From an uncultured bacterium (lineage in GTDB: Bacteria > Bacteroidota > Bacteroidia > Bacteroidales > Bacteroidaceae), in NCBI GenBank assembly GCA_945829425.1, contig CALZUQ010000004.1:19337-83336 (forward strand): a stretch of 64,000 nucleotides of DNA, in the 5' to 3' direction. Below the pieces are notes generated by a model, which ran no database searches, had not been told where the DNA came from, and saw only the letters and a list, made by a program, of their open reading frames with translations. The translations under genes were made by a program, and so were the position numbers. Positions 34,804-62,172 of this stretch are shown here, in pieces; positions within the stretch are counted from its first letter, which is position 1, and every line of letters starts with the position of its first letter.

Positions 34804-34862
34804 ATCTTTACATTCCTTTTATTAAAAATGTCGAATTGTTTGGAAATGTGAAAGAAAATAGG

Positions 34863-34870
34863 TAACTTTG
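34863..34870 (+). promoter_or_regulatory. -7 element (TAACTTTG) in promoter block shared by both DUF1703-type genes
   Basis: ttattaaaaatgtcgaattgtttggaaatgtgaaagaaaataggtaactttgccgctgaa occurs here and at ~36827-36882. Confidence 0.6.
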
Positions 34871-34914
34871 CCGCTGAATAAAAGACATCATGATACAGAA
34901 AAAGTTTGTGAGAT

Positions 34915-36483: not shown

Positions 36484-36494
36484 TTCCATTTTGA

Positions 36495-36712
36495 TAAGGT
36501 GGGTTCTATAAATTCGCTTTGTCAGATTTTGGGATTTTTTTCGAGGATAAATTGTAAGTTGAAGAGGTTTCCGTCTCCCGGGAAACGTTTCTGTCCCCCG
36601 GGAAACGGGGGAACCGAAGGGGGTGTATAGCGGGCTACGTGACCGATAAGACTTACGATTTAGACCGAAAAGAAACCAAAATCTGACAAAGCGAATTAAT
36701 AGAACCCACCTA
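36495..36712. mobile_element. MITE-like element copy C (~218 bp, long TIRs, internal insertion)
   Basis: ggtgggttctat(a/t)aattcgctttgtcagattttgg inverted at both ends; core gggggtgtatagcgggctacgtgaccga; insertion containing gtttccgtctcccgggaaac-type repeats. Confidence 0.8.
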
Positions 36713-36725
36713 AAGATATTTTTTT

Positions 36726-36777
36726 ATAGGCATAAAAAATTATTTTTATAGGCATAAAAAAATATTTTCATAGGCAT
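36726..36777. repeat. 22-bp x 3 phased ATAGGCAT motif with A/T tracts upstream of second DUF1703-type gene
   Basis: ATAGGCAT at 36726, 36748, 36770; exact 22-bp spacing. Confidence 0.8.
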
Positions 36778-36894
36778 GAAAAAAAATAGACTCCAAACCA
36801 CCGGTAGATTTTCATTCCTTTTTATTAAAAATGTCGAATTGTTTGGAAATGTGAAAGAAAATAGGTAACTTTGCCGCTGAACAATATAATCATC

Positions 36895-38673
36895 ATGGTT
36901 ATGGACGAGAAAAAGGTAAAAGAAGCGGTTAAGCGAATACCCTACGGTATGATGAACTTCGTGGCTGTGCGCGAGGACAACTATTATTATGTCGATAAGA
37001 CAAGGTTTATAGAAAAAGTGGAAGATTCGAACAGATACTTTTTCTTCATCCGCCCCCGCCGTTTCGGCAAGAGTCTCACCATATCGATGTTGCACCACTA
37101 TTATGATATTAACGCAGCTGATAAGTTTGAGAGGTTGTACGGCGACTTGTATATAGGCAAGCATCCTACACCCAACCACAACAAGTATCTCATAATATAT
37201 CTCAATTTTGCCGTGGTAAATGCCGACTTGGGCAATTATCGCAGTGCGTTGGATGCAATATGCAACACTGAGTTCAATTATTTCTGCGATGTCTATGAGC
37301 AGTACTTGCCCAAAGGCATTAAGGAAGAGATGAACAAGAAGAATGGTTGTGTGGAACAGCTTGACCATCTCTATAAGGAAGCGCGAAAGACGGATGCGAA
37401 GATCTATCTCTTCATCGATGAGTATGACCACTTCACCAATCACATCCTCTCCGATGCAGCCCGCCTCGACGAATATCGGGGCGAGACTCACGGCACTGGC
37501 TATCTGCGAACTTTCTTCGACACCATAAAGGCAGGCACTTATTCGAGTATAGAGCGTGTCTTCATCACGGGCGTAAGTCCCGTAACCCTTGATGACCTCA
37601 CCAGCGGCTTCAACATCGGCACAAACTACTCACTCTCCTATGGCTTCAACCAAATGGTGGGGTTCACCGAAGAAGAGGTGCGCGAGATGCTGACATACTA
37701 TTCGCAGCACTATGAGTTCAACCACACCATTGATGAACTAATCGAGATAATGAAGCCGTATTACGACAATTACTGCTTTGCCAAGGAAGCATACGGCGAG
37801 ACGACGATGTACAACTCGAATATGGTCCTCTCATTTCTTTATAAATATATAGACAACAGGTGCTGGATTCCGGACAGAATGTTGGAGGAGAATATCCGTG
37901 TTGACTACAACAAGCTGCGTATGCTCATCCGCAAGGACAAGGAGTTTGCACACGATGCCTCCATCATCCAGACATTGGTGTCGAAAGGCTACGTGACGGG
38001 AGAACTGAAGGAAGGATTCCCGGCAGAGGACATCGCCGACAACGACAACTTCATCAGTCTGCTCTACTATTTCGGCATGGTGACTATCGGCGGATTCTAT
38101 CGTGGAAAGCCTAAGTTCGTCATTCCCAATGAAGTCGTGCGCGAACAGGTTTATTCATATCTTCTCGACAACTATCACGACAACCATCTCTACACCGACA
38201 TGGATGAGCTGAGTCGATTGGAGGAGAACATGGCATACGATGGCGAGTTCAAGCCATTCTTCCAGTTTATTGCCGACAGCATATATACCTTTGCCTCGCA
38301 GCGCGACCGCCAGAAGGGCGAGTCCTTCGTGCATGGCTATACCCTCGCCCTTACAAGCCTCTGCTGCTACTACCGTCCCATCTCCGAGCTTGACAACCAG
38401 AACGGCTATGCCGACGTCTTCCTCCGCCCACGGTGTGAGATATTCAAGGATATGGAACACTCGTATATCATCGAGCTGAAATATCTTAAGAGTAATGCGA
38501 CGGAGGCTGAGGTTAACGCCGCCATAAGGCAAGCCGAGGCTCAGGTCTGCCGCTATGCCGAGACGGTGAATGTTAACGACAACATCGGACATACCACCCT
38601 CCACAAGGTATATGTAGTATATCGGGGTGTGGAAATGGTGGCGTGCGATGAAATACAGATACTCAACATTTAA
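36895..38673 (+). CDS. AAA-ATPase-like / PD-(D/E)XK nuclease superfamily protein (DUF1703 type), second copy
   Basis: YYYVDKTRFIEKVEDSNRYFFFIRPRRFGKSLTISMLHHYYD; C-terminal DVFLRPRCEIFKDMEHSYIIELKY. ORF-track start 36871 lies in the promoter; ATG 36895 or 36901 preferred. Confidence 0.92.
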   Translation: MVMDEKKVKEAVKRIPYGMMNFVAVREDNYYYVDKTRFIEKVEDSNRYFFFIRPRRFGKSLTISMLHHYYDINAADKFERLYGDLYIGKHPTPNHNKYLIIYLNFAVVNADLGNYRSALDAICNTEFNYFCDVYEQYLPKGIKEEMNKKNGCVEQLDHLYKEARKTDAKIYLFIDEYDHFTNHILSDAARLDEYRGETHGTGYLRTFFDTIKAGTYSSIERVFITGVSPVTLDDLTSGFNIGTNYSLSYGFNQMVGFTEEEVREMLTYYSQHYEFNHTIDELIEIMKPYYDNYCFAKEAYGETTMYNSNMVLSFLYKYIDNRCWIPDRMLEENIRVDYNKLRMLIRKDKEFAHDASIIQTLVSKGYVTGELKEGFPAEDIADNDNFISLLYYFGMVTIGGFYRGKPKFVIPNEVVREQVYSYLLDNYHDNHLYTDMDELSRLEENMAYDGEFKPFFQFIADSIYTFASQRDRQKGESFVHGYTLALTSLCCYYRPISELDNQNGYADVFLRPRCEIFKDMEHSYIIELKYLKSNATEAEVNAAIRQAEAQVCRYAETVNVNDNIGHTTLHKVYVVYRGVEMVACDEIQILNI

Positions 38674-38816: not shown

Positions 38817-38899
38817 CCTATCGTATGCCATTTATCGTTTTTCTTATACTTTTTTACCAAATAATTCTTCCTTTTTTTGCTCGTTTTATTTTTTTTCTG

Positions 38900-38907
38900 T
38901 AAATTTG
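38900..38907 (+). promoter_or_regulatory. -7 element (TAAATTTG) for the BMP-like lipoprotein operon
   Basis: TAnnTTTG about 30 nt before ATG 38936; duplicated at 51159. Confidence 0.6.
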
Positions 38908-38935: not shown

Positions 38936-40042
38936 ATGCTTATATATATATACTGTAACATTTTTCACGTTATACTCTTCCTGTTTGTAAGTGGGGGGTG
39001 CAAAAAACGTCTGTCGACAAGTAACATAGCGTTATTTGCCTTATTCACTTTTACCTTATTTTCTCTTACGGCTTGTTCGGACAATGATGACGATGACACG
39101 TCTTCCGCATTGACTTCCGCCAATGTGGTGGAGGTAGTGTTCTCGCCATCGAGCTTCGGCGACTTGGGTTATAACGACATCATACTCACGGGACTTGAGG
39201 AGTCGCGCAAGCGTCTCGGCTTCGACGTGGTGATGCATGTACCACCGTCGGTGGAGGACGGTATCGCCATCTACAACAAATGGGCGCAGAAGGATGCCAA
39301 GGGCGAGCGACGACTCTTCATCTTCGCCAGCAACCAGTATGAGAGTGCCTTGCGCAACTCTACTGTGCGCCCCTCGGATGCCAACAGCACGGTGCTGCTC
39401 TACGAGACCCACCAGCCCATCGAAGGGATATACACCTTCCGCATAGGGATGTATGGTGCGGCTTATCTCATCGGAGCATACACCGCCCTAACCAATAATG
39501 AGGAATCCGACTACAAGGCAGCCGTACTCGCAGCCAATCCCTTCGACCGTAATGTTGACGGAGCGGCACAGGGATTCCGCGACGGGTTCCTTGAGGCAGG
39601 AGGAGCTGATGCCACCATATCCTATATCTCCGACAAGGACGGCGACGGCTACAACATGCCTGACGAAGCCTACGACCTCTGCACCCGACTTTACGAGTCC
39701 GGCCACACCTTTTTCTTCCCCGTGGCAGGCGGCAGCAACAAAGCTGTATATCAGTTCTCGCGCAACAATCTTCTCGGCTCTGCAGGCATCGACGGTGACA
39801 TGTCTGCCTATTCTGGTTTGATGAACTGTTCGCTCGTAAAGAATATCGGCAGTGCCACCGGCGACTTCATCGCCCTGTGGCTCGGCAAGAAGGAAATCCC
39901 CCAACATCAGGATTTCCTCTGGGATTCGGGCTACGTCAGCGTCATCTATTGTCATGATTGTAAGGAAACTGACGCACAAGGCATTGAAACATTCAAGAAC
40001 AATATTATAGGAAAGGAGGCAGAGTATGAAAAGAGCAAGTAA
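38936..40042 (+). CDS. BMP/PnrA-like substrate-binding lipoprotein
   Basis: 368 aa; lipobox SLTACSDNDDDD; VEVVFSPSSFGDLGYNDIILTGLEESRKRLGFDV and later VDGAAQGFRDGFLEAGG resemble the BMP family. Confidence 0.65.
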   Translation: MLIYIYCNIFHVILFLFVSGGCKKRLSTSNIALFALFTFTLFSLTACSDNDDDDTSSALTSANVVEVVFSPSSFGDLGYNDIILTGLEESRKRLGFDVVMHVPPSVEDGIAIYNKWAQKDAKGERRLFIFASNQYESALRNSTVRPSDANSTVLLYETHQPIEGIYTFRIGMYGAAYLIGAYTALTNNEESDYKAAVLAANPFDRNVDGAAQGFRDGFLEAGGADATISYISDKDGDGYNMPDEAYDLCTRLYESGHTFFFPVAGGSNKAVYQFSRNNLLGSAGIDGDMSAYSGLMNCSLVKNIGSATGDFIALWLGKKEIPQHQDFLWDSGYVSVIYCHDCKETDAQGIETFKNNIIGKEAEYEKSK

Positions 40043-42131
40043 AATATGGGCAGTTAACTTCCCGATATATATAATAATGTGTATCTTCCTGCTGTTCTCC
40101 TGCTCCGATGATAACAACAACGCCACCTCGGGCCCCGAGGTCAGCTCCAACCGCGAGGTGAGGATTGCCGTGGTGCTCAAGAAGGGCGACCGCCAGGAGC
40201 GCGTGCAACGCATACTCGACTTGGCTCGCGAGAATATCACCATGGCACGGGGCGGAGTCGTGCCATCATACGAATACTACGACGAGGACACCACTACCCT
40301 CGCTTCCTTGGCGGTGGAACTCGCCTCGCGCGAGGACATTGCCGCCGTGGTGGGATGCTATGACGACCAGCACACCAAGACCCTCGCCTACGAGTGCATC
40401 AAGACCGACAAGACCATGTTCACTTTCAACACCTCGCAGGAACTTGCGCGCATCTTCGGTGAGCACGGCAACTACTGGGGACTATCCGAGAGCGACATCA
40501 CACAATGCGAGATACTGCTGTCAATTATATCGAAAGCCGCAAATGCTGACGTGGCACTCCTTGCCTGCGACAACGAATACGGACAGACCTTCGTGGATTG
40601 GTTTGCCTTCCAGGCTTCAGAGATGGGACTCAATCCCGTGGGCATCGCCACATACAAGGACAAGTCGGAGATTCCCGACGCCTATCGCAAGGCATGTGCC
40701 AGTCATCCTGTCTTCACCCTGTGCGTGCCCAACAACGCAGAAGAGGCTAATATAATGTATGAATGTACCAAGATGGATGATTTCGCCTACTGGACTATGC
40801 CTTTCTTCACCGACCGTGCCTACGAACCCGCCATTCTGAAGAACGAGGGAGTTATGGGACTCAACCTCGTGGCTGACCCCACGTCGGGATTCAGTGTCAT
40901 ATATAAGGCACGCTTCGGCGAAGCTCCCATCCATGGCGAAGCAGAGCTGTATGATGCCATCATGCTCACCTGTCTTGCAAGCCGATATGACGAGGAGCAT
41001 AATCTCAACAACCTCAACCTTGCCATAGGCACCCTGCTCTACTACCACTCCGACAGTCAGGGCGGATGGATGTCGGGCAACATGAAGCAGATTTTCGAGA
41101 CGATTGCCGAAGGTGGTGTTCCCGAGGTGAGCGGTGCCGTGGGCAAGCTCGACTTCGATCCCAAGAACTACACGCTCATCACCCATTCCACCTACGATTA
41201 CTGGATGGTGTATGAAGGAAAGTTTCTCTCGCTCAACTATATGAAGCGTTCCGAGGGCGAACACTCCTCGTCGCCCATCGTCAGCTGGGAGTGGGACAAG
41301 ACCTACCAGCAGCAGTTCGACGAGCACATGTCCGACATTGGCTATCCTGCCCTCACGGGCAACAAGGCGGTCATCATTGCCGCTTCGGGCGGATGGGAGA
41401 ACTACCGCTTCCAGGCCGACGCGCTCGAATACTACCAGATGCTCCGCAGTGCGGGCTATAGCGACGACGACATCATTCTCATCATGTCCGATGACCTGGC
41501 GCAGAACGCCAACAATCCCGACAAGGGAGTGGTGCGCCGCTCGGTGGATGGAGACAACCTGTATAAGGATGTTGTCGTTGACTATCGCCTTGAGGACATC
41601 ACCTACAACGACCTTGCCGTCATCTTCTCGGGCAAGGCAGACGTTGCCCATCCCGAAGTGCTCGACAGTGGCACAGGCGACAACGTGCTCTTCTTCTGGA
41701 GCAGCCACGGCACTCAGGCAGGACTTGCCCTTGGCAACATCTACAATGTGTCGGGCAAGCAGATGGCGCGCATACTGCAGAAGATGAGCAACGAGCAGCG
41801 CTTCCGCAAGATGATGTGGATAGTGGAGGCATGTTATGCCGGCGGAGTGGCAAAGGAGTGCGAGGGCATTCCCGGACTGCTCGTGATGACGGCAGCCAAT
41901 GCAAACGAGTCGTCGAAGGCCGACCTGTGGTATGCCCCCTACGGCGTGTATATCACCAATCGCTTCACCTCCTCCATCATCTCCCGTCTGAAGTCCGACC
42001 CTGCGACATCTCTTCGCGACCTCTACAACGTGGCGTTCACCGGAACGTTAGGTTCGCACGTCACGATATATAATGCCGACAACTACGGCAACTTGTATCA
42101 GAACACGATGAGGGAATTCTTTAGAAATTAG
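40026..42131 (+). CDS. Lipoprotein: type-1 periplasmic binding domain fused to legumain-like (C13, clan CD) cysteine peptidase
   Basis: 701 aa; lipobox LLFSCSDDNN; Peripla_BP-like N region (AAVVGCYDDQHTKTLAYECIKTDKTMFTFNTS); C region NKAVIIAASGGWENYRFQADALEYYQMLRSAGYSDDDIILIMSDDLA...NVLFFWSSHGTQAG (His)...MMWIVEACYAGG (Cys). Confidence 0.9.
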   Translation: MKRASKIWAVNFPIYIIMCIFLLFSCSDDNNNATSGPEVSSNREVRIAVVLKKGDRQERVQRILDLARENITMARGGVVPSYEYYDEDTTTLASLAVELASREDIAAVVGCYDDQHTKTLAYECIKTDKTMFTFNTSQELARIFGEHGNYWGLSESDITQCEILLSIISKAANADVALLACDNEYGQTFVDWFAFQASEMGLNPVGIATYKDKSEIPDAYRKACASHPVFTLCVPNNAEEANIMYECTKMDDFAYWTMPFFTDRAYEPAILKNEGVMGLNLVADPTSGFSVIYKARFGEAPIHGEAELYDAIMLTCLASRYDEEHNLNNLNLAIGTLLYYHSDSQGGWMSGNMKQIFETIAEGGVPEVSGAVGKLDFDPKNYTLITHSTYDYWMVYEGKFLSLNYMKRSEGEHSSSPIVSWEWDKTYQQQFDEHMSDIGYPALTGNKAVIIAASGGWENYRFQADALEYYQMLRSAGYSDDDIILIMSDDLAQNANNPDKGVVRRSVDGDNLYKDVVVDYRLEDITYNDLAVIFSGKADVAHPEVLDSGTGDNVLFFWSSHGTQAGLALGNIYNVSGKQMARILQKMSNEQRFRKMMWIVEACYAGGVAKECEGIPGLLVMTAANANESSKADLWYAPYGVYITNRFTSSIISRLKSDPATSLRDLYNVAFTGTLGSHVTIYNADNYGNLYQNTMREFFRN

Positions 42132-42191
42132 GAATGAGGAATGAGGAATGAAGAATTATAAATTATAAATTATAAATTAAAAGTAATCATT

Positions 42192-45100
42192 ATGAAACAG
42201 AAACGACCACTTAAGCCCGGGTTCTTCGGGCTGCTAATGGGACTTCTCATGCTGTTTGGCTCAACTACGTTGGGTCATGCCCAGGATAAAGCCGCAAGGG
42301 CAGCCTGGAAATCATGGGAACAGAAGTTGAAGTATGATGCCATCTACTACTCTAACGGGGATTATGTGACCGAAACCGGTGAGGGCGGGCACAAGATGTA
42401 CCATGTGCAGGTAGCAGAAGCCGAGGCTGGCATCGAACATGCCGTTATCTATAATGATATCGGCGAAGCGTGGAACTATCGCACCGTGCGTGTCACTCCA
42501 TGGGCTATCGCGATGAAACCGACGCTGATAGACATCACCTTCGCCGACTGCTCAAGCAACACCGCGGGTACCAACGCATACGCATGGATAAGCATTGACC
42601 TTGCCGAGGAGTGCTTCGCTGACAACAAGAACCTCGAGGCAGTCTATATGAAGTATAAGATGTATGCCGACGACGACCACACCATCATGCTTAAGCCCAA
42701 AGACGTGCGTGCAGGAAAAAACATCTTCTGGAACAACACCAAACCGAAGATATATGTAGATTGGGAGTATTATCAGGACTACCTCAACGACTCTAAATGG
42801 GGAGTATATAAAGACCAGATAGTGCCCACCACCACTATGCGTGAGGCAGAAAAGACATTTGAAGGCGTGGGCTATGCCCGCGACCATGTGGAGGATGGCA
42901 AGGGCTCGTTCAGGAAAGAGTCCGCAGGAGATAAGGACATCTCTTACGCCCATGTCATCGGTGCGTCGGAGTCGGATATAAGTAAAGTCAACGGCGCTAT
43001 CCTTATATATAATGACTATGGTTGGGATGCTCCATATATCATTACACGAATATGGTCGCATGCCTACGATGGTTCCTCCGCTCTGAAGTCGGTGAAGTTT
43101 CAGGACGTGCGTAACGGCAAGTCCTACAAGGACATGAACATCACCATAGGCGACTATGCCTTTGCCAACTGCCCCAACCTTCTCACCTTCGACCTCGTGA
43201 TGAAGGTAGCGTCAACGAAAGAGATGAAGGATCTGACTCCTGCCAACATCAAGATAGGCAAGCACGTGTTCGACGGCTCGCCCAATGTTCAGATCCGCGT
43301 GCCCCTCTTTCAGAAAGCCGCATTCGAGGCTGACGAGAACTGGAAGGAGTACGCCCACCTGTTTGTGCCCTACGTGGAGGATATTACCAACTCTGACGTT
43401 GAAGAGGGCGGTGTCCACTACAGCTATATCTATAATTCCAACGGCAACTACGTGACCACGAAGGTGACAGACCCCAAAGACGGGAATCACATTCTCTATC
43501 ATGTGAAAGCCACCAGCGTGGATAACGACAAGGATGCGATAGTTGTGTATAACGACATCGGCACAGCTTGGTACTACCGCACAGTGCTCTTTGACAACAA
43601 TGCACTCAACGGCAAGAGCACTCTCAAGACCATCTCCTTTGCCGACTGCGTGTCAAATCTTCCTTATAGTCAGGCATGGGTTTGGCCACGCATCGAGCTT
43701 GGCAAGACCTCAATGCAATATTGCCCCAGCCTTGAGGAGGTGCAGATGAAATATAAGATGTATGCCGGTGACGACCATACCGTCATGCTGCGACCGGGAA
43801 CCATAGTTCCGCAGGAGGGCTTCAACTTTGAGGGCAGCCCCAAGGCCAAGATTCTTGTAGATCCCGAATACTACAGCTCATATATTAACGCCCCCGAATG
43901 GCAGGGCGTAAAGGACCGCATCGTCTCCACACCGAAGATGCGCGAGGCTGAGTTCAAGGAATACGGTATGCAGTATGCCCGCGACAACAACGAGGATGCC
44001 ACGGGATCATACAAGACCACCACGAGCAACAACGGCAATACCACTGTATATAAGGTGCACGTAATAGGTCCTGATGCCGACTACATCAAGAACCACGACG
44101 GCATTGCCTATCTCTACAAGGACATAGGTCAGACCTGGGCATATACCACCACTAAGATCTGGGCACGCTCGTTCGACGGTTGTGATGACCTGAAATCGGT
44201 GAAGATATACGACATCATGCCCTCGGCAACCAAGAACTACCTCGACCTCAACATAGAGATTGGCGACTCGGCTTTCGTCAACTGCCGCAACCTTAAGTTC
44301 TTCGACGTTGTGATGAACTCGGTGGATGAGAAAGACCACTTCGAGGTCATCCATCCGTCGCAGATGCCTATAGGCAAAGATGTCTTTGCCGGCAGTCCCA
44401 AGGTGCGCATACGCGTGGCTTCATCGGCATATACCGAGTTCCTCAACGACGAGAAATGGAGCCAGTATGCTAACCTTATAGAACCATACGACTTCGAGAT
44501 GGCGGACTATAAGGAGGGCGGAGCCATATACAGCATGTGGCGCACTGAAGATGGTCAGACTTTCTATAGCAGCAAGGATGCAGAGGAGATGGAAAAGATT
44601 GTGGAGCCTTGGGCTGCTGCATTCCGCAACCTCGAACCAGATAAACTCTTGGCTCTTGACACTGATGAGACCCTGTGGTACACACATATCACCGGTCTTG
44701 ATGATGACTATCTGAAGAAACACGATGGAGAGTTGAGAATATACAATGACATCGGTACATCTTATGACTTCAAGACCCTCGCCATCGACAGCATTCAGTT
44801 GCGTGGCAATGAGAATATTAAGAAGATTGTCTTCGAGGATTGCGCATCGGGTTCAGAAAATGCCAATACCATGCTGAAGATGGTCATCCACAACGGTGCT
44901 TTCAAGGACTGCAAGAATTTGAAGGAGCTCAACATGTTCTATCTCTCTACAAAGGGTACAAACGAGATGAAATACCTGACTCCTGAGGATGTTTATATCG
45001 GTGAGAACGTGTTCGACGGAGTGGATAAGGATTTCCGCATTGTTGTTGCTCCCGAGGCATATACGGATTTCATTACAGATGCCAACTGGGGGCAGTATAA

Positions 45101-48100
45101 GGAAATGATAGTTGCATGTGACTATGTGCCTACTGCCGAAGATGACATAGTGGAGGAAGGCGTTACATACGGATATGCCGCCAATACGCTTAACTCCCTG
45201 CCAACATCAACAGTGGCTCATCTACAATCGTCTATGTGGAATCTCGCTACTTTGGCTGGAGAGGTTGTAATAGCAGTATTAACGGACGGTCTGGCGCAAG
45301 CAGGAATTAGTGGTGCGTCAACTGCTTCAAGTACCGTAGTGACAGCATTGTCACGAACAATATTCAAGCCAGCAGCACTTATTGGGCATAGTCTTTTTAT
45401 CGCAGGTCAACCTGCAACAGAAGCAGCATATAATGCCGCCATCCATGGTATAGGCTTATGTTTTGGAGTTCAATCTGCATTGAACACTCATGCGGCACTT
45501 GCAATAAGTTCAAATATTGAGTCAAATATACGACATAACACGTGGATGATTTCAGGAAGCGGATGGATCTTGACAGAGAACAAACATCCAATATATCACA
45601 TGTATGTGAAGGATGTTGACGACAGCAAGACCGACCTTACCATCTATAATGATATAGGTACTGCTTACAACTACAGTACTATAGGCTTTGGAGATCGTGC
45701 ATTCTGGAACAAGACCAATCTTATGCGCATTGGATTCAAAGACCAGCTGCGTGGCGACACCGAGGCCCGCAAGGCAATGTGCATCGCCATTCCCGACTCT
45801 TGCTTCCTGGGCTGCAGCAACCTCCGTATGCTCGACCTCGTGCTCAAGAGCAACGAGGACGGCAGCGAGCAGGCTCTCGGTCCGGAGAACTTCCTGATTC
45901 TTGGCGACAAGATATTCGAGGGATGCCATCCCGACCTGAAGATTCGCATCGGACGCGAGCGTCTTGACGACTTCCTCGCCAACGAGACTTGGCAGCCATA
46001 CAAGAATATGTTCGAGGTGGTTGACATAGAAGACAAGGTATCGTTTGAGGAAAAAGGGGTTCAGTATGCCCGTGAGTTTGAGAACGCATCGCGAGTATAT
46101 CAGACATTCATCGAGGACCACACCATCGAGCATCTCAAAGTGGTTGGTGCAACAGATGATATAGACAAGCAACAAGGCGAGGTGTCGTTGTGGAACGATA
46201 TAGGTAGATACAACAACTACAAGCTCGACCGCGTGAAATATAAGGCGTTCTATAACAATCCCAAGGTGAAGGGACTTTCCTTCTGGGATGTGCTTGGAGG
46301 CGATGCTTACACAAACCTCAACGTGACGCTGCAAGATTCTTGCTTTGCTGATTGCAAGAACCTCGAGTATGTCAACATGCTTTATATGGTGACAGACGGC
46401 TTCAACACCGCCAAGGAGATGCTGCCCGACTCAGTTCATCTGGGCAAAGGCGTGTTTGATGGCTGCGACAAGCTGAAGATTAAGATGATGTGGAATGCCA
46501 CCGACAAGTTCCTCGCCGACTCTACATGGGCAAACTATAAGGACAAGTTTGCTCCGTGCTTCTTCAAGCCGGCAGACGAGGAGGTGGAGGATGCTCTCGA
46601 TGATGCTGGTCTTTCCTACAAGTCTCCCATCAGCGACACATGGGACGTGATGGATGCCACTCAGATGAAGAATATTGAGTCTGTACGTGACCAAATAGGC
46701 AAGAGGGAAATCAAGGCATTTGAGGAATTTAAGGCATTTGAGACTGTTGGTCTTGAGCGAGTGCCAATAGAGATGTTCCGTAACCAGAAAAACTTGCAGT
46801 TGGTTAAGATTCCTTCAACAGTGAAGACCATCTGCCAGTCTGCCTTTGAGGGATGCGGTTCATTGCCAAGAATAGAGATTCCTGAGTCTGTGACTTCTAT
46901 TGAGAATTCGGCTTTCAAAGACTGCTCGACACTTAAAAGCATAAGGATGATGTCTTCAGTACCCGCCACATTGTCAGGCGAACCATTTGCTGGTCTTCCT
47001 TCTGATTATGTCATCTACGTTCCCGACACGGCTTCGGTGGTTGCTGCTTATAAGGAAAAGTGGCCTGAGTATGCCGATCATATTCAGGAATATAAATTCA
47101 AGTCAACATTTAAGACCGTCACTGTTAAAGAAGCTGGTACACTCGCAAAGGAACTTGGCTTCTATTCCGCTACTGGTACTGATGAGTCTGGTGCGATAGC
47201 TCATTATAGCATCAGTGGTGAGTTCTCTCAGTATGATAGTTTGAAGATTGTTGGTCCTCTAAATAGTGATGACTTTGCTGCTATTCGCTCTCTTGGTGGT
47301 AGAACTCCTATACATTGCAATATAGAGCCGCGTGGACGATTGAAATATCTCGACTTGTCTGATGCAGACATTGTAAAAGGCGGTTTGTTCTATTCAACAG
47401 AGAATTATGGTGTCGATATTTACCGATCAACAAAAGATGATGTAATCGGTCTGGTAATGTTCGAAAAACTGCCATACCTCGAGACTCTCATTCTTCCCAA
47501 CTCTGCAAAGAGCATAGAGGATGAGATGGCATGGAAGTGCCCGAATCTGAAGCGCATCGTCTTCGGTCCGAACATCAACGACATCGAGGAGGACATCATC
47601 CAGGAAACTCCAAACCTGACAGAAATGATATTCCTCGGTCCTGTGCCAAAGACGATGGACAAGGAGATGTTCTACGGCAAGGCAAGCCGCATAGTGGCAT
47701 ATACCACCAATGCCGAGCAAGCCAACTATACAGCCGCAGCACGTATATATAATAATGTGGATACCATCGCCACAGGATTTGAGGACGACCGCACTCTGCA
47801 GGTAATGGCAAAGAAGGGTATCTATTTGGGTACTGACCTTGCCAATCTGAACTCTTTCGAAAATGTGGTCAACGGTGAGGGGATAGGAAAGTTTATGGAG
47901 CTGATATATGCCTTAAACGTGACAACGCTCGGCGACAACTCGCTGAACGGATGCTCTGAGATGGACGTGGTGTCATTGCCTTACAACTTGAAGTCAATCA
48001 CTGCTGATGCCTTCAAGGGCTGCACAAGTCTGAACACGGTGTATGGAACATGCTCCGAGATACCAGAATTGGCAGCAGACGCCTTCCGCGACCTGCCTTC

Positions 48101-49958
48101 TAACTTCGTCATCATCGTGCCTATGGGCAAGGAGAACGAATGGCGTGAGGCATGGAAACAGTATGCCGACCATATCATCGGCTACCGCCCTGACGAGAAG
48201 TCGGAGTTGACGGAGGTTACACTGACTAAGGCAGGAACGCTGGGTGCGAAGCTCGGTCTTGAGGTGACTATGGACGCTCCAGACAACGTGGGCAGAATCA
48301 GCGGTGACTACTATAAGATCAGGGGACTGAAGGTAAACGGTAAAATCAATGGTAAGGACATAGCCGTGATACGTATGCTCGGTGGTCGTGACGAGGAAGA
48401 AGGTGACGAGGTTGCACTCTCGCGCATGACATATCTCGACCTCTACAATGCCGAGATAGTGACCGACCCGAACAATATCTGTTACAACCGCGACAGCTAC
48501 AACGACTATGTGGAGCGCGACAACGAGGTGCCCGAGAACATGTTCTGGAAGCTCGACAACATCCGCACGCTCATACTGCCGAAGAAGGCCACGAAGATCA
48601 ACGAGGAGGCTTGCTATGACATGCTCAACCTCAAGACAGTTGTCATCGGCGACGAGACAACATATATCGACAACGATGCCTTCGGCGAATGTCCAGGTCT
48701 TGAGAACATGGTGTTCCTCTGCAACAAGAAGGCAGTACTCCACGAAGATGCCTTCAGAGACCCTGCAAGCGACAAGAACTTCCAGGTGAAGAACATGTAC
48801 GTGCCGTTCAGTTATGTGAATGACTGCAGGTCGGACAAGGAATACACCGAGCACTCGATGAACATCTGGACTAAGTATCCTGACGATGGTGTCTTCCGTG
48901 CCTACGGCCGTAACCTCGTAATGACAGATGATGATCTGCAGAACGTAAGCAACATCGACGGATGGTTTGACGACTACGAGAGCATTACTGACCTATCGAC
49001 GCTCTCTAAGACAGTCATCGACTCGCTGAAGACTGACGTTCTTGCCAAGCAGCCTAAGTTGCAGAAGATCAGTCTGCCGAAGACTCTCACAACCGTTCAG
49101 GAGAATGTCTTCTCCAATAACGGCAACCTCGTCTGGGCTGATTTCACCCGCTGCTCGGAGGCTGGAGCCTCGCTTGCAGTTAACGCCGGAAAGCTCGGTG
49201 CTGCCAAGAGCACTCTCGTGTATATGCCTTCATCGTTCGGCTCTTCGGATAAGGCCAACGTGGTATATGGTGCCGATGGCGCAAGGGAGTGCGCAAGGTA
49301 TGAACTGACTGACTCGCGCGATTATGACGTGCCGATGGAGTTCACCGCCAAGGAGATAAGCTACGACCGCAACTTCAAGAAGCGCAAAGCACCTTACACC
49401 ACCTGTCTGCCGTTCGACTGCGACGTGCCTGCAGGCTGCAAGGCTTACACACTCTCAGGTCGTTCGGACAACGAACTCATCTTCACCCAGGTGTCTGACA
49501 TGAAGGGCGAGAAACCTTACCTCATCATCGCCGAGGATGCCGACGCAAAGATTGAGCAGACCTCCAACGTGAAGATTCCTGTCACTCCTACCCGTCTGCC
49601 GCAGGTGAACGCACCCGGCTACTCTATGCTCGGCACTCTCTCGTATATCGACAACGATAAGGCGGCTGGCATGAAGGCCTACGTGCTGCAGCCCGACGCC
49701 CAGTGGCATCCCGTAAGCAACGACGGCAAGAGCAACATAGCCCCCTATCGCGCCTTCATACAGGTGAACGGCACAATGGCTACGCGCGCCCTCCAGTCGT
49801 GGTTTGAGGATGTTGATGGCACGACGGGCGTGACAGTCCTGAAGACCATCGACTTCGACGGCAAGGAACGCTACTACGACCTCAGCGGCCGCCAGCTCAA
49901 TGGCGCACCGAAGCAGGGAGTGTATATTCACAACGGGAAGAAAATTATTAGGAACTAG
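42192..49958 (+). CDS. Giant secreted surface protein: seven ~185-aa YNDIG modules plus C-terminal BspA-like LRR region
   Basis: 2588 aa; signal peptide; repeated (I/V)YNDIG..Y..T motif; LRR_5-like VKIPSTVKTICQSAFEGCGSLPRIEIPESVTSIENSAFKDCSTL; tail YYDLSGRQLNGAPKQGVYIHNGKKIIRN. Confidence 0.88.
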   Translation: MKQKRPLKPGFFGLLMGLLMLFGSTTLGHAQDKAARAAWKSWEQKLKYDAIYYSNGDYVTETGEGGHKMYHVQVAEAEAGIEHAVIYNDIGEAWNYRTVRVTPWAIAMKPTLIDITFADCSSNTAGTNAYAWISIDLAEECFADNKNLEAVYMKYKMYADDDHTIMLKPKDVRAGKNIFWNNTKPKIYVDWEYYQDYLNDSKWGVYKDQIVPTTTMREAEKTFEGVGYARDHVEDGKGSFRKESAGDKDISYAHVIGASESDISKVNGAILIYNDYGWDAPYIITRIWSHAYDGSSALKSVKFQDVRNGKSYKDMNITIGDYAFANCPNLLTFDLVMKVASTKEMKDLTPANIKIGKHVFDGSPNVQIRVPLFQKAAFEADENWKEYAHLFVPYVEDITNSDVEEGGVHYSYIYNSNGNYVTTKVTDPKDGNHILYHVKATSVDNDKDAIVVYNDIGTAWYYRTVLFDNNALNGKSTLKTISFADCVSNLPYSQAWVWPRIELGKTSMQYCPSLEEVQMKYKMYAGDDHTVMLRPGTIVPQEGFNFEGSPKAKILVDPEYYSSYINAPEWQGVKDRIVSTPKMREAEFKEYGMQYARDNNEDATGSYKTTTSNNGNTTVYKVHVIGPDADYIKNHDGIAYLYKDIGQTWAYTTTKIWARSFDGCDDLKSVKIYDIMPSATKNYLDLNIEIGDSAFVNCRNLKFFDVVMNSVDEKDHFEVIHPSQMPIGKDVFAGSPKVRIRVASSAYTEFLNDEKWSQYANLIEPYDFEMADYKEGGAIYSMWRTEDGQTFYSSKDAEEMEKIVEPWAAAFRNLEPDKLLALDTDETLWYTHITGLDDDYLKKHDGELRIYNDIGTSYDFKTLAIDSIQLRGNENIKKIVFEDCASGSENANTMLKMVIHNGAFKDCKNLKELNMFYLSTKGTNEMKYLTPEDVYIGENVFDGVDKDFRIVVAPEAYTDFITDANWGQYKEMIVACDYVPTAEDDIVEEGVTYGYAANTLNSLPTSTVAHLQSSMWNLATLAGEVVIAVLTDGLAQAGISGASTASSTVVTALSRTIFKPAALIGHSLFIAGQPATEAAYNAAIHGIGLCFGVQSALNTHAALAISSNIESNIRHNTWMISGSGWILTENKHPIYHMYVKDVDDSKTDLTIYNDIGTAYNYSTIGFGDRAFWNKTNLMRIGFKDQLRGDTEARKAMCIAIPDSCFLGCSNLRMLDLVLKSNEDGSEQALGPENFLILGDKIFEGCHPDLKIRIGRERLDDFLANETWQPYKNMFEVVDIEDKVSFEEKGVQYAREFENASRVYQTFIEDHTIEHLKVVGATDDIDKQQGEVSLWNDIGRYNNYKLDRVKYKAFYNNPKVKGLSFWDVLGGDAYTNLNVTLQDSCFADCKNLEYVNMLYMVTDGFNTAKEMLPDSVHLGKGVFDGCDKLKIKMMWNATDKFLADSTWANYKDKFAPCFFKPADEEVEDALDDAGLSYKSPISDTWDVMDATQMKNIESVRDQIGKREIKAFEEFKAFETVGLERVPIEMFRNQKNLQLVKIPSTVKTICQSAFEGCGSLPRIEIPESVTSIENSAFKDCSTLKSIRMMSSVPATLSGEPFAGLPSDYVIYVPDTASVVAAYKEKWPEYADHIQEYKFKSTFKTVTVKEAGTLAKELGFYSATGTDESGAIAHYSISGEFSQYDSLKIVGPLNSDDFAAIRSLGGRTPIHCNIEPRGRLKYLDLSDADIVKGGLFYSTENYGVDIYRSTKDDVIGLVMFEKLPYLETLILPNSAKSIEDEMAWKCPNLKRIVFGPNINDIEEDIIQETPNLTEMIFLGPVPKTMDKEMFYGKASRIVAYTTNAEQANYTAAARIYNNVDTIATGFEDDRTLQVMAKKGIYLGTDLANLNSFENVVNGEGIGKFMELIYALNVTTLGDNSLNGCSEMDVVSLPYNLKSITADAFKGCTSLNTVYGTCSEIPELAADAFRDLPSNFVIIVPMGKENEWREAWKQYADHIIGYRPDEKSELTEVTLTKAGTLGAKLGLEVTMDAPDNVGRISGDYYKIRGLKVNGKINGKDIAVIRMLGGRDEEEGDEVALSRMTYLDLYNAEIVTDPNNICYNRDSYNDYVERDNEVPENMFWKLDNIRTLILPKKATKINEEACYDMLNLKTVVIGDETTYIDNDAFGECPGLENMVFLCNKKAVLHEDAFRDPASDKNFQVKNMYVPFSYVNDCRSDKEYTEHSMNIWTKYPDDGVFRAYGRNLVMTDDDLQNVSNIDGWFDDYESITDLSTLSKTVIDSLKTDVLAKQPKLQKISLPKTLTTVQENVFSNNGNLVWADFTRCSEAGASLAVNAGKLGAAKSTLVYMPSSFGSSDKANVVYGADGARECARYELTDSRDYDVPMEFTAKEISYDRNFKKRKAPYTTCLPFDCDVPAGCKAYTLSGRSDNELIFTQVSDMKGEKPYLIIAEDADAKIEQTSNVKIPVTPTRLPQVNAPGYSMLGTLSYIDNDKAAGMKAYVLQPDAQWHPVSNDGKSNIAPYRAFIQVNGTMATRALQSWFEDVDGTTGVTVLKTIDFDGKERYYDLSGRQLNGAPKQGVYIHNGKKIIRN

Positions 49959-50101
49959 GAAGGAGGAATGAGGAATGAGGAGTTAAGCCTAATGTATGTA
50001 CGCTGGGATGTCATTGCGTTAATGCCATTGCGCTGAAGACAAAAGCTCAAAACTAATGGCTTAACTCCTTATCCCCCCCATAAAAATAAAAATTTAAAGT
50101 T

Positions 50102-50701
50102 ATGATTAAAAAGTTTTTTATATTAGCAGTTGCTGCCCTCGCCCTTGTGGCGTGCGGCGGTGACGATGAGCCGGACACTCCGACTCCGGAGCCTACAGTG
50201 GAATCAAAGTGCGATGTGACTCATACGGTCAACGTGTCGCAAGACTTGCTTGAAGTGGCTAACGTCACCATATATTATATAGGTGCCAACGGACTGGTTG
50301 TCTCCGAACCGATTAATTCGGCAACATGGACAAAGACCGTGACCCAGGCTCTGCCGTGCAAGTTCGGCGTTGCTCTGTCGTGCACAATGAAGCAGGGTGT
50401 GCAGTTGGATGGAAACCGCACCTACTCGTTCTCGGGCAATGCCCAACTAAGCGCGAATATAGTAGCTCAGAACGGTAAGTTCACCGACACTTATAACAAG
50501 ACCTCCACTTTGAAGAAGGCGGAACTGAATGCCGACGGTGTCGCTGCATATATCTCAACAGCCAATATCGCAGTGGCGCGTGCTGTCGACGAGAAGGGTG
50601 AAACAAGCACAACAACCATCGACTGGGGCTTCAATGCCGGTGAAGGCGGCACGACCGATACTCCCGTGAGCGGCGACCCTGCCACGGGAGATGCGGAGTG
50701 A
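50102..50701 (+). CDS. Hypothetical lipoprotein
   Basis: 199 aa; lipobox ALVACGGDDEPDTPTPEP. Confidence 0.7.
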   Translation: MIKKFFILAVAALALVACGGDDEPDTPTPEPTVESKCDVTHTVNVSQDLLEVANVTIYYIGANGLVVSEPINSATWTKTVTQALPCKFGVALSCTMKQGVQLDGNRTYSFSGNAQLSANIVAQNGKFTDTYNKTSTLKKAELNADGVAAYISTANIAVARAVDEKGETSTTTIDWGFNAGEGGTTDTPVSGDPATGDAE

Positions 50702-50823: not shown

Positions 50824-50970
50824 ATGTCCGCCCAGGCTGCAATGAAGCAGATTGACCTCAAGGACTACGCCTCTAAGTTTGCTCTCTCTGGTCTGCCCAT
50901 AGTAAAGGTCGGCATCAACTTCGACCCTGAGCGCAGGACAATCGGCGACTGGACTGTCTGCGGCAGCTGA
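50824..50970 (+). pseudogene. C-terminal remnant of a DUF1703-type gene
   Basis: MSAQAAMKQIDLKDYASKFALSGLPIVKVGINFDPERRTIGDWTVCGS matches the C-terminus of 34915-36483; preceded by a degenerate piece of the shared promoter. Confidence 0.85.
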
Positions 50971-50996: not shown

Positions 50997-51445
50997 GACA
51001 AGTCTCCCCCCATTATTATAATTGCTGCGGTAAAGCCATGCGGTTTGAGAAATTGCCGCATGGCTTTACCCCCCCCCTATCGTATACCATTTATCGTTTT
51101 TATTATCCTTTTTTACTAAATAATTCTTCCTTTTTTTGCTCGTTTTATTTTTTTTCTGTAAATTTGCAACAAAATTGGTATTATTAGTTAGGATATGCTT
51201 TTTTATATATACTGTAACATTTTTCACGTTATCCTCTTCCTGTTTGTAAGTGGGGGGTGCAAAAAACGTCTGTCGACAAGTAACATAGCGTTATTTGCCT
51301 TATTCACTTTTACCTTATTTTCTCTTACGGCTTGTTCGGACAATGATGACGATGACACGTCTTCCGCATTGACTTCCGCCAATGTGGTGGAGGTAGTGTT
51401 CTCGCCATCGAGCTTCGGCGACTTGGGTTATAACGACATCATACT
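50997..51445 (+). repeat. Duplicate of 38739-39186 (hairpin, promoter, N-terminus of BMP-like lipoprotein)
   Basis: Near-identical sequence by direct comparison, ending at ..aacgacatcatact. Confidence 0.92.
51195..51445 (+). pseudogene. Truncated N-terminus of a BMP-like lipoprotein
   Basis: MLFYIYCNIFHVILFLFVSGGCKKRLSTSNIALFALFTFTLFSLTACSDNDDDD... identical to 38936 copy until junction, then unrelated frame. Confidence 0.9.
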
Positions 51446-51589
51446 GACCACAGTGTGGATTTCGAATCAACATCGTTCGACAGGAACGCTATGCCCGAGG
51501 ACATCACCAACTGCACCGAGGCGCAAGCCGACGTCATGGCAGACCTGTTCTACAAGTGTGCCGTAGCTGCCAACAGCAAATTCCATTGA
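51446..51589 (+). pseudogene. C-terminal fragment of an unidentified protein
   Basis: Open frame DHSVDFESTSFDRNAMPEDITNCTEAQADVMADLFYKCAVAANSKFH*, starting exactly at the junction, in a different frame from the BMP remnant. Confidence 0.6.
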
Positions 51590-51612
51590 TACACCTTAAA
51601 AAAATAACAGTT

Positions 51613-54210
51613 ATGAGAAAGTCTATAATGATTATCATGGCATTGGTGACGATGAATGTCACCAATGCCGATGCCAAGAAGTTCTACCACTATGGTAATA
51701 CACTTACATTTCTCTGCGACGACGAGACGCTGACGGCGGAAGTGGCGGGAACGTACCACGTGGAGACGAGCGGCACCATCACCGTGCCGGAGACATTTGT
51801 TGCCAAGGACGGAAATACTTATACCGTGACAGCCATCGGCGACAACTTCTTGTATTTCAACGGCTATTCCTATTCTCAGGGTTGCACTGAGGTAGTATTG
51901 CCCAAGACCATCAAGTCTATAGGTACATGTGCCTTCTATTACGCAAAGATAAAAAGCATCAACCTGCCCGAAGAATTGGAGTCGATAGGCGAGGCGGCAT
52001 TTATGAATTGTAAAAACCTTGAGTTGGCAGAATTGCCTTCATCGCTGAAGCATCTTGGCAGTTGGGCGTTTAGCGGATGTCCGGGCATAACAATTTCCAC
52101 ACTGCCTGAGTCGATAGAGACATTGGGCAAAGGAGTGTTTTCCGGCGTTCTCTTTGGCGACAAGATGACATCGTTCACCTTCCCTGACCATATAACGGAA
52201 CTGCCCGACAGCTTTTTCTATAGGAGGAAGGGGCTTAAGGAGCTTCATCTGCCGGCAAACCTGAAGAAGATAGGCAGTATGGTCATCAACAACACCAAGC
52301 TGACGGAATTGGTAATACCGGAAGGAGTCACCGAGATAGCGGAGCGTGCATTCTGGGGCAACAGGTCTCTGACAACCTTTGTACTTCCAAAGTCGATGAC
52401 GAAGATACCTGCCGGAGCATTCGCCAATACGGGCATAAAGAACCTGGACTTCCTGCCTGCCGGCGTAACGGAGATAGGCGATGAGGCATTCCGTGGTTCG
52501 GAACTGGTGGAGGCCAACATCCCTGAGGGCGTAACGACAATTGGGGCGGATGTACTATATGGGTGCAGCAATCTGGAGACAGCGAGCTTTCCGAAGACGG
52601 CTGTGGATGTCAGCAGTTGGCCTTTGGAGGGATGCTTTAATCTGAAGGGCTTTACTATTGCCGAAGGCAACCCGTCGTTGAAGATGACATCCGACTCGGT
52701 CATTACATGCACTATTAGCGACGGTCGTCGGTTATTGTATGTAGCACAGTCGGCAATCGTTGACAGTACATTCGTCATACCTGACGATATCAAGGAAATC
52801 GGCAACAATGCCTTCGGATACTACAGGATGGTCAACCGCATAGAGTTTCCCGAGGGCTTGAGGCGAATAGGAAATTCCAACTTCGAATATTCTCCGATAA
52901 AGAAAGTTGTGCTTCCTTCAACCCTTGAAGAACTGGGCGATGAAGTCTTTAATGGATGCACTTTGTTGGAAGAGGTCGTGCTGCCTGAAAAGCTAAGGAG
53001 TATACCTTCCAGGACTTTTGCTTACTGTAGCAATTTGTCGAAAGTTAATTGGCCAGCAGAATTGGAGGAGATCGGAAATTCTGCTTTTTCCGGTACTTCG
53101 CTGCCTTCGGAGGTGATATTGCCGAATAGTGTCAAGCGTATTGGTCAGGCTGCATTCAGCAACAACAAGAAACCTTTCGAGAACTTTGTGCTGCCCGAAG
53201 GTATCAAAAACATTGAGACTTCGACTTTTAACGGGAGCAAACTGCCCAACGGAATTGTCATTCCGGGCAGTGTGAGAACCATTGGCGAAGGAGCGTTTAT
53301 GGCTTGCAATTGGGACAACATTGTCATTCCGGAAGGAGTGGAATTCATAGGTAATGCAAGCTTTAAGTCAAATTATGCGACACAAGTATCGCTGCCGTCA
53401 ACACTGAAATACATAGACAAATACGCTTTTGCAGAGAATAACTTAGAAACCGTCATTCTCCCCGAAGGATTGAAGAGAATATGTGCCAATGCCTTCAATG
53501 GCTGTAACTATCTGAAAGAAATATCGATACCTTTTGGTGTTAATGTGAATCCGTATGCTTTCTACGAATGTACAGGATTGGAAAAGGTGACCTTTCCCGA
53601 GGACTTGCAGATCATCCATCCGGGACTGTTCGCTGGTTGCACAAGCCTGAAGAGCGTAAAGCTGCCCAAGAACGTGATAGCTCTGGAAAACGAGATATTC
53701 GACGGCTGCTCTGCCTTGGAGGAGATTGATTTCCCTGAGACGTTGGAGTGCATCGGCAACTGGGTGTTCTGCGGTACAAACCTTAAGAAAGCCAACCTGT
53801 CGCACACATCGCTGCGGAACATCATCTGGGAGGCATTTGCCGACAACAAGAGTCTCACCGAGGTGCGTCTGCCTGCCACCTGCAATTTCGTAGGCGAAAA
53901 GGCATTCGCCGGTTGTGACAACATCAGCGTGGTGGAAGTGCTCGCCACCGTACCGCCTACGGCAGAAGCTGAGGCGTTCCAGTCGCCTGTAACTGACAAT
54001 GCCGTACTCATCGTGCCGGAAGGCTCTGAGCAGGCCTACCGCAACGCCGAGGTATGGAAGGAGTTCAAGAACATCGCCACGCCGACGGGAGTGAAATCCA
54101 CCTTCGTTGACTCTCAAGACGGAGAGCGCATATATGACCTGAACGGCATAGAGATTAAGACTGAAAAGGGTCTGTTCATTAAGAATGGAATTAAAGTATT
54201 GAAAAATTAA
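51613..54210 (+). CDS. BspA-type (LRR_5) leucine-rich repeat surface protein
   Basis: Signal peptide MRKSIMIIMALVTMNVTNADA; many LRR_5 units (ITELPDSFFYRRKGLKELHLPANLKKIGSMVI); start refined from 51556 to 51613. Confidence 0.93.
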   Translation: MRKSIMIIMALVTMNVTNADAKKFYHYGNTLTFLCDDETLTAEVAGTYHVETSGTITVPETFVAKDGNTYTVTAIGDNFLYFNGYSYSQGCTEVVLPKTIKSIGTCAFYYAKIKSINLPEELESIGEAAFMNCKNLELAELPSSLKHLGSWAFSGCPGITISTLPESIETLGKGVFSGVLFGDKMTSFTFPDHITELPDSFFYRRKGLKELHLPANLKKIGSMVINNTKLTELVIPEGVTEIAERAFWGNRSLTTFVLPKSMTKIPAGAFANTGIKNLDFLPAGVTEIGDEAFRGSELVEANIPEGVTTIGADVLYGCSNLETASFPKTAVDVSSWPLEGCFNLKGFTIAEGNPSLKMTSDSVITCTISDGRRLLYVAQSAIVDSTFVIPDDIKEIGNNAFGYYRMVNRIEFPEGLRRIGNSNFEYSPIKKVVLPSTLEELGDEVFNGCTLLEEVVLPEKLRSIPSRTFAYCSNLSKVNWPAELEEIGNSAFSGTSLPSEVILPNSVKRIGQAAFSNNKKPFENFVLPEGIKNIETSTFNGSKLPNGIVIPGSVRTIGEGAFMACNWDNIVIPEGVEFIGNASFKSNYATQVSLPSTLKYIDKYAFAENNLETVILPEGLKRICANAFNGCNYLKEISIPFGVNVNPYAFYECTGLEKVTFPEDLQIIHPGLFAGCTSLKSVKLPKNVIALENEIFDGCSALEEIDFPETLECIGNWVFCGTNLKKANLSHTSLRNIIWEAFADNKSLTEVRLPATCNFVGEKAFAGCDNISVVEVLATVPPTAEAEAFQSPVTDNAVLIVPEGSEQAYRNAEVWKEFKNIATPTGVKSTFVDSQDGERIYDLNGIEIKTEKGLFIKNGIKVLKN

Positions 54211-54217
54211 TGTGCGA

Positions 54218-54256
54218 ACCTCGGCATAACCAAGCTAACTTGAGCTATGCCGAGGT
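54218..54256. terminator. Hairpin after BspA-like gene (no clear T-tract)
   Basis: acctcggcata ... tatgccgaggt. Confidence 0.5.
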
Positions 54257-54282
54257 GAAGCCATCAATCAACGAAGTCAATT

Positions 54283-56805: not shown

Positions 56806-56810
56806 AAACA

Positions 56811-57341
56811 ATGATCATGAAGTATTTCGCATTATTGCTGTCGGTTATTACCATGTTGATTACCACAGGAGAAGTTAAGGCACAGGTTGCCAGTGAAGAA
56901 ACGCGAGAGAATATCGTTGTTGATGGTCTTGCATACGTTATCTTCAAGAATGCCAAGACTGCCGCCGTTATTCCCAATTACTATTATGACGACAACAAGG
57001 AGCTGCACCTTCTGTGTGACCCCTATGCTGGCGACATCGCCGTACCGGCAACAATCACAGTGGAAGGCGTGGACTACACCGTGACCGAACTGGCAGAAGA
57101 CGCGTTTTGGGCGTCTGACGTAACAAGTCTCTCGCTTCCATCGACAATAAAGAAGCTTGGCACCAACTCAATAGTTTTTTGCACGGAGCTAAAGAAGGTC
57201 AACATACCGGCATCGGTGGAGGAAATTAGCGACGGAGTGTTTGGTATTTGTGGGGAAATCACCGATTTCACTCTTGACGAGGGCAATAGCCACTTCATCA
57301 TGGAGTCGGACATGCTGATGAGAAAGGTAATGTCTCATTAA
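56811..57341 (+). pseudogene. Internally deleted (855 bp, in-frame) copy of the 62173-63558 LRR protein gene
   Basis: Residues 1-170 identical to 62173 ORF, then joins directly to its C-terminus (..RKVMSH) at a 2-bp GA microhomology. Confidence 0.85.
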
Positions 57342-57372
57342 CAGAACTTTTGAGTACTATGTGGACGGATTA

Positions 57373-57502
57373 GGCTGGAAGCCTATACTTTGAGTAACCC
57401 GGGACGAAGTCTCCGGACTATGCCAAGGTCTCCCCCACCCTCTGCTTAGAGGGCAGTACCTTGCACGCCTCTGCTGCATAAGTGATGTACTGGCTTCCAG
57501 CC
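57373..57502. repeat. 130-bp element bounded by 11-bp inverted repeats GGCTGGAAGCC/GGCTTCCAGCC
   Basis: Inverted repeats at 57373-57383 and 57492-57502; second copy 63590-63719. Confidence 0.7.
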
Positions 57503-57506
57503 AGTA

Positions 57507-57664
57507 CCTTAACCTTGACTTGAAACCTGGAACCTGAAACCTGAAACCTGAAACTTGAAACCTGAAACTTGAAACCTGAAACCTGAAACCAGGAACTTGA
57601 AACCTGAAATCTGGAACTTGAAACCAGGAACTTGAAACCTGAAACTTGAAACCTGGAACTTGAC
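57507..57664. repeat. Tandem short repeats: accttR then gaaacctg/gaacttg units
   Basis: accttaaccttgacttgaaacctggaacctgaaacctgaaac...; second copy ~63724-63881. Confidence 0.9.
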
Positions 57665-57704
57665 AATTATACATTATACATTGTAAATTATAATAAAAGA
57701 CAAT

Positions 57705-62167: not shown

Positions 62168-62172
62168 AAACA

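What the first reader, a model, noticed from the sequence alone, without database searches (positions are those of the whole stretch)
38936..50701. Candidate uncharacterised surface system: BMP-like lipoprotein, PBP-C13 protease, 2588-aa repeat protein, small lipoprotein
Four same-strand genes follow one Bacteroidetes promoter (TAAATTTG 38900). The first two overlap by 17 bp, the third starts 60 bp later, the fourth ~143 bp later; all carry lipoprotein or signal peptides. Inference: two binding-protein folds, a caspase-like protease and a giant repeat protein may act together in sensing, processing or displaying a surface protein. The same first-gene promoter and N-terminus occur again at 51 kb, so the cassette has been duplicated before.
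Basis: inference. Interest (0 to 1): 0.8.

Follow-up and report, generated by a model that had tools for sequence, protein, structure and literature searches.

The report
Surface legumain-type protease operon, variable clients
A gut Prevotella-like bacterium carries an undescribed, horizontally moving set of cell-surface genes in which two ligand-binding lipoproteins, one fused to a legumain-like protease, travel with large surface proteins (here a giant repeat protein, elsewhere pore-forming MACPF proteins), which suggests that the protease processes or activates them.

Summary
The four-gene cassette is real and conserved in part. The BMP-type lipoprotein occurs only with the binding-protein/C13 protease fusion (PBPC13): 29 of 32 PBPC13+ genomes, 0 of 48 PBPC13- genomes, directly upstream. 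The C13 domain is legumain-like (E 4e-57; catalytic His/Cys and NYR motif kept). The pair sits in a patchy, horizontally moving operon with a small lipoprotein (SLIPO), a second lipoprotein (c2) and a variable large client: MACPF pore-formers (21 of 21 MACPF hits in PBPC13+ genomes lie within 8 kb upstream, same strand), the unnamed c6 family, or the giant LRR_5 protein, which is followed by SLIPO in the window and in G060, G089 and G176. The duplication claim is wrong in extent: only 452 bp (promoter plus 84 codons) recurs at 51 kb, as a remnant. Best mechanism (inferred): a surface protease, perhaps ligand-gated, matures or activates its co-encoded client, as C11 proteases do for Bacteroidales CDCL toxins. 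I found no published description. The giant's role is the weakest part: it is not adjacent in the nearest relatives.

The parts
38876..38907 (+). Bacteroidetes-type promoter match (-33 TTTG, -7 TAAATTTG)
   Evidence: pattern scan; sequence
38936..40042 (+). BMP: PnrA/BMP-type substrate-binding lipoprotein (lipobox ...SLTAC, acidic residues after the Cys)
   Evidence: best PDB relatives BMP/PnrA-type lipoproteins such as 7x0r and 2fqw; found only in genomes with PBPC13
40026..42131 (+). PBPC13: lipoprotein with N-terminal LIVBP-type binding domain and C-terminal legumain-type C13 peptidase (NYR 459-461, H561, C603); no C-terminal prodomain
42192..49958 (+). GIANT: 2588-aa secreted BspA-type LRR_5 protein, type-I signal peptide, hydrophobic charge-poor insert about residues 990-1105; presumed client
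   Evidence: homologues at PBPC13 loci in G060, G089, G176
50102..50701 (+). SLIPO: 199-aa lipoprotein family that accompanies the client gene
50830..50953 (+). remnant of the 3' end of an AAA-ATPase/PDDEXK_9 gene (81% to 36340-36463)
50997..51448 (+). remnant copy (96%) of the BMP promoter and first 84 codons, fused to an unrelated frame

Best explanation
The window holds one version of a mobile surface operon of Bacteroidales. Its fixed core is two outer-membrane lipoproteins: a BMP/PnrA-like binding protein and a LIVBP-like binding domain fused to a legumain-type (C13) cysteine protease. With no legumain-like prodomain, the binding domain and the partner BMP probably gate or dock the protease. 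The core works on a co-encoded large client: MACPF pore-formers or c6 proteins in other genomes, the 2588-aa LRR protein here. It cleaves the client after Asn/Asp on the surface, to mature, activate or release it. SLIPO, and c2 where present, would be a client partner or self-protection protein, as BcdI is for CDCL toxins. Shown: pairing, domains, catalytic residues, lipoboxes, client linkage, patchy and horizontal distribution. Inferred: surface exposure, cleavage of the client, ligand gating, the SLIPO role, and any antagonistic purpose.
For: BMP in 29/32 PBPC13+ and 0/48 PBPC13- genomes, adjacent each time except for the window's own remnant. Legumain E 4e-57, GPI transamidase 2e-49; H561, C603, R461 invariant in 25 sequences. 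21/21 MACPF hits in nine PBPC13+ genomes lie within 8 kb upstream on the same strand, in four families. GIANT: 6 of 9 carriers are PBPC13+ against 26/201 overall, p=2e-4; G060, G089 and G176 have it linked, followed by SLIPO. SLIPO hits at E<1e-20: all but two (G000:C46, G487:C2) at PBPC13 loci, none in the 31 negatives searched. Acidic residues after the lipid Cys in most members. No transporter permease recognised beside the pair in the loci examined. Precedent: C11 surface lipoprotein proteases activate CDCL and BcpT toxins, and a CDCL operon carries an immunity lipoprotein (PMC11169675, PMC9308784).
Against: No cleavage is shown. In the closest relatives (L033, L035, L036; 88-91% identical PBPC13) GIANT is not adjacent, and several PBPC13 loci have no recognisable client (L042, L051, L055, L059, L063). 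GIANT homologues also occur away from PBPC13 (G083, G128, G148), and the hydrophobic insert is not specific to system-linked giants. The S1-pocket position matching legumain Asp231 is Asn in the window's clade, so Asn specificity is uncertain. The c6 body has no recognisable fold.
Confidence: 0.5

Rival explanations
1. Chance neighbours: BMP-PBPC13 is a self-contained module, and GIANT-SLIPO is an unrelated pair that landed beside it in an LRR-rich recombining region.
For: GIANT not adjacent in L033, L035, L036; the region holds many recent duplications; GIANT relatives exist elsewhere without the pair.
Against: GIANT-SLIPO is linked to the pair in G060, G089 and G176 on a different branch of the PBPC13 tree; SLIPO is strongly tied to PBPC13 loci, including c6 and MACPF ones.
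Confidence: 0.2
2. Nutrient capture: the protease degrades host or dietary protein and the two binding lipoproteins capture peptides, amino acids or nucleosides.
For: BMP and LIVBP folds bind nucleosides and amino acids in their known members.
Against: No permease, SusCD or TonB partner recognised in the loci examined; repeated linkage to MACPF proteins is hard to explain; patchy, horizontally moved distribution.
Confidence: 0.13
3. Surface transpeptidase: PBPC13 works like GPI transamidase or a peptide asparaginyl ligase and joins the client to a surface acceptor.
For: C13 includes GPI transamidase and plant ligases, which match at E 2e-49 to 1e-45.
Against: No shared C-terminal sorting motif seen across clients; MACPF and c6 clients carry their own lipid anchor; legumain is the closer match.
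Confidence: 0.1
4. A type IX secretion accessory comparable to PorU that removes the C-terminal signal of T9SS cargo such as GIANT.
For: SprA is present in 25 of 26 PBPC13+ genomes against 155 of 201 overall; GIANT ends in a YDLSGR...NGKK tail.
Against: G010 (100% complete) carries PBPC13 at several loci and no SprA; lipoprotein clients do not need T9SS; the GIANT tail is not recognised by PF18962 or TIGR04183.
Confidence: 0.05

Closest known systems
Bacteroidales CDCL two-component toxins with C11 activation and BcdI immunity lipoprotein (PMC11169675)
   Same: Lipoprotein pore-formers of the MACPF/CDC superfamily; activation by a clan-CD surface lipoprotein protease; a surface lipoprotein gene in the same operon
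   Different: There the protease is C11 and encoded elsewhere, in the target cell; here a C13 protease fused to a binding domain is encoded in the operon with a BMP partner, and clients vary
BSAP antimicrobial MACPF lipoproteins (PMC12853789, PMC4999547)
   Same: MACPF lipoproteins with acidic residues after the lipid Cys (clients of nine other carriers)
   Different: I recall no dedicated protease or binding-protein pair; the window's client has no MACPF domain
Legumain / GPI transamidase (MEROPS C13)
   Same: Catalytic His and Cys and the NYR motif; legumain E 4e-57
   Different: Bacterial lipoprotein with an N-terminal LIVBP-type domain and no C-terminal prodomain; Asp231 position is Asn in the window's clade
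BspA-like LRR surface proteins (PF13306)
   Same: GIANT repeats belong to LRR_5
   Different: Very long, with a hydrophobic insert, linked to SLIPO and a protease pair

Membership tests
Peptidase family C13 (legumain family) | Significant match to the C13 profile | tested here: met
   PF01650 E 3.7e-49; legumain 4e-57 with the family profile
Peptidase family C13 (legumain family) | Catalytic His-Gly and Cys plus NYR motif | tested here: met
   H561-G562 and C603 invariant in 25 sequences, R461 invariant, N459 and Y460 at 90% or more
Peptidase family C13 (legumain family) | Cleavage after Asn/Asp | not testable with these tools
   Needs an enzyme assay; S1 pocket partly changed
BMP/PnrA substrate-binding proteins (PF02608) | Profile match above cut-off | tested here: met
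   28.4 bits against cut-off 24.1; 7x0r 1e-16
ABC importer substrate-binding protein | Linked permease and ATPase genes | tested here: not met
   None recognised beside the pair in the gene maps of the loci
BSAP antimicrobial proteins | MACPF domain in the lipoprotein | tested here: not met
   No MACPF in window proteins or in the window's genome; met by client genes of nine other carriers
BspA-like proteins | LRR_5 repeats in a secreted protein | tested here: met
   GIANT: PF13306 E 1.6e-56, 5 stretches
T9SS cargo | C-terminal sorting domain PF18962/TIGR04183 | tested here: inconclusive
   No hit for GIANT, though the C-terminal tail resembles one; SprA present in the genome
CDCL toxin operon | PF01289 paired genes | tested here: inconclusive
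   No PF01289 hit in any client scanned; the c6 fold search gave no clear match

The most novel reading that the evidence does not exclude
A ligand-gated 'sense-cut-act' surface weapon or signalling device: two solute-binding lipoproteins detect a competitor or host molecule and switch on a legumain-type protease that activates interchangeable effectors (MACPF pores, c6 proteins, giant LRR proteins), with SLIPO or c2 as immunity protein.
Probability: 0.22. Interest if true: 0.88.

Novelty: new variant of a known kind. Interest (0 to 1): 0.62.

Why it matters
Proteolytic activation of Bacteroidales pore-formers is known through C11 proteases encoded elsewhere. Here is an operon that encodes its own legumain-type protease, joined to ligand-binding domains, next to MACPF and other large surface proteins in several gut families. 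It gives a testable link between sensing, surface proteolysis and interbacterial or host interaction, and it proposes functions for two unannotated lipoprotein families (SLIPO, c2) and one large one (c6).

Tried and rejected
Cassette duplication: rejected, only 452 bp plus a 124-bp piece recur. Plasmid-borne spread: no tblastn hit in PLSDB for the window protein. Phage or known defence module: no PHROGs hits, only a weak PADLOC caspase match for PBPC13. c6 as MACPF: profile comparison aligned only the signal-peptide/N-terminal part; two AlphaFold models of c6 (pLDDT 42.5 and 62.7) and PDB fold searches matched only the N-terminal Ig-like domain, so the c6 body stays unknown. Hydrophobic insert as a mark of system-linked giants: rejected, present in unlinked ones too. 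c6 is not exclusive to PBPC13 genomes. SLIPO and c2 have no PDB relatives by sequence. Ten paper searches found no description of the PBP-C13 fusion or of a MACPF-C13 operon in the open-access library; subscription papers are mostly not covered.

Full report
What is there. The window is G000:C4:19337-83336, a 2.8-Mb genome; the nearest named relatives of the protease are Prevotella sp. P5-50, P2-180 and P5-92. A -33/-7 promoter of Bacteroidetes type precedes the first gene, and no clear + strand terminator falls in the gaps. Pfam: BMP PF02608; C13 PF01650 with a weak Peripla_BP_6; LRR_5; none for the small lipoprotein. At 51 kb only the promoter and 84 codons of BMP recur (96% over 452 bp), preceded by 124 bp of an AAA-ATPase 3' end and followed by an unrelated frame: a decayed remnant.

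Names used. BMP, PBPC13, GIANT and SLIPO are genes 1 to 4. c2 (about 300-390 aa) and c6 (about 650-790 aa) are lipoprotein clusters from neighbouring genes in related genomes.

The conserved core. PBPC13 occurs in 26 of 201 family genomes spread over 10 of 30 genera and in six further genomes of four other families in an order-wide sample. BMP lies directly upstream in 28 of the 34 first-round loci. With a profile, BMP occurs in 29 of 32 PBPC13+ genomes and none of 48 PBPC13- genomes; every match but the window's own remnant adjoins PBPC13. This is an obligate pair. The C13 domain matches legumain at 4e-57, GPI transamidase at 2e-49 and plant asparaginyl ligases. The lipobox Cys, R461, H561 and C603 are invariant in 25 sequences, and N459 and Y460 nearly so. 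The Pfam match ends at residue 687 of 701, so there is no legumain-like C-terminal prodomain. From my own knowledge of legumain numbering, the Asp231 of its S1 pocket aligns with Asn in the window's clade and Asp in the 790-aa clade, so specificity may differ. The N-terminal domain resembles LIVBP/mGluR-type binding proteins.

The clients. Within the same strand run, PBPC13 loci hold variable large exported proteins. In G022, G048, G087, G110, G179, G190 and G307, G487, G523 these are MACPF proteins: all 21 MACPF hits of these nine genomes lie upstream of PBPC13 on the same strand within 8 kb. In G053, G134, G162, G179, G069 and G012 the slot holds c6. In G060 (two copies), G089 and G176 it holds GIANT homologues immediately followed by SLIPO and then BMP-PBPC13. 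In the window the order is BMP, PBPC13, GIANT, SLIPO, so the GIANT-SLIPO unit is kept and its side is swapped. SLIPO relatives also accompany c6 (L047-L050) and MACPF (L078) loci and follow PBPC13 directly in G300 and G483. GIANT carriers are enriched for PBPC13: 6 of 9 against 26 of 201, p=2e-4.

Distribution. In a tree of 31 PBPC13 sequences, members of other families (G307, G487, G523) nest inside the window's family with support 0.91-1.0, and the GIANT-linked loci fall on two separate branches. Eleven of 13 genomes of the window's own genus lack PBPC13. This fits an accessory, transferred system.

Mechanism. The simplest reading is that the pair acts on the client. All core parts are lipoproteins, mostly with acidic residues after the Cys, the type of signal reported to export lipoproteins to the surface (Lauber 2016, as cited within PMC12853789). 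Precedents: C11 surface lipoprotein proteases cleave and activate CDCL toxins and BcpT, and a CDCL operon carries the immunity lipoprotein BcdI (PMC11169675, PMC9308784). Here the protease is C13, carries its own binding domain and is encoded in the operon. For the window, GIANT as client is inferred from linkage only.

Doubts. The nearest relatives have BMP-PBPC13 without adjacent GIANT: L033 has c2 upstream and an inverted lipoprotein downstream, L035 an LRR protein nearby, and L036 a C11 protease plus a SLIPO fragment fused to an LRR tail. Several loci have no recognised client. The GIANT hydrophobic insert is shared with unlinked giants. The body of c6 could not be assigned a fold. SprA is common in the family anyway (155 of 201), so T9SS dependence is not established. 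Many genomes are drafts, so absences and missing neighbours at contig ends are soft, and the counts treat related genomes as independent.

Novelty. The open-access literature searches gave no description of this fusion or operon. I file it as a new variant of a known kind (proteolytically activated or processed Bacteroidales surface and pore-forming proteins).

Noticed in passing
window 51603-63998: BspA-type LRR genes and a C11 clostripain-family lipoprotein (57705-59411) in a recent tandem duplication: 56725-57321 vs 62087-62683 at 99.5%, 57320-57781 vs 63537-63998 at 98.9%.
   Followed up: partly
window 34839-38673: Two AAA-ATPase_like/PDDEXK_9 genes whose upstream promoter-like sequences (34839, 36842) are identical over 32 bases.
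   Followed up: no
L047, L087-L098, L102, L113-L115: c6: a widespread unannotated lipoprotein family with a helical glycine/serine-rich insert between long strands, also found away from PBPC13; no Pfam or PDB match to its body.
   Followed up: partly
L104:10524-13432 (G000:C46): A second SLIPO relative in the window's own genome, followed by an unannotated 777-aa secreted protein and no PBPC13.
   Followed up: partly
L046: In G069 the BMP-PBPC13 pair lies directly upstream of ruvA-sprA, the T9SS translocon gene.
   Followed up: partly
L036:13385-13834: A SLIPO fragment fused in frame to the C-terminal end of an LRR protein: mosaic recombination at this locus in a close relative.
   Followed up: partly
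window 19098-25175: S8 subtilase with a weak T9SS sorting domain, followed by a 1231-aa LRR protein.
   Followed up: no
window 4621-7278: Protein with GH28 and GH88 domains fused, a pectin-degradation enzyme.
   Followed up: no
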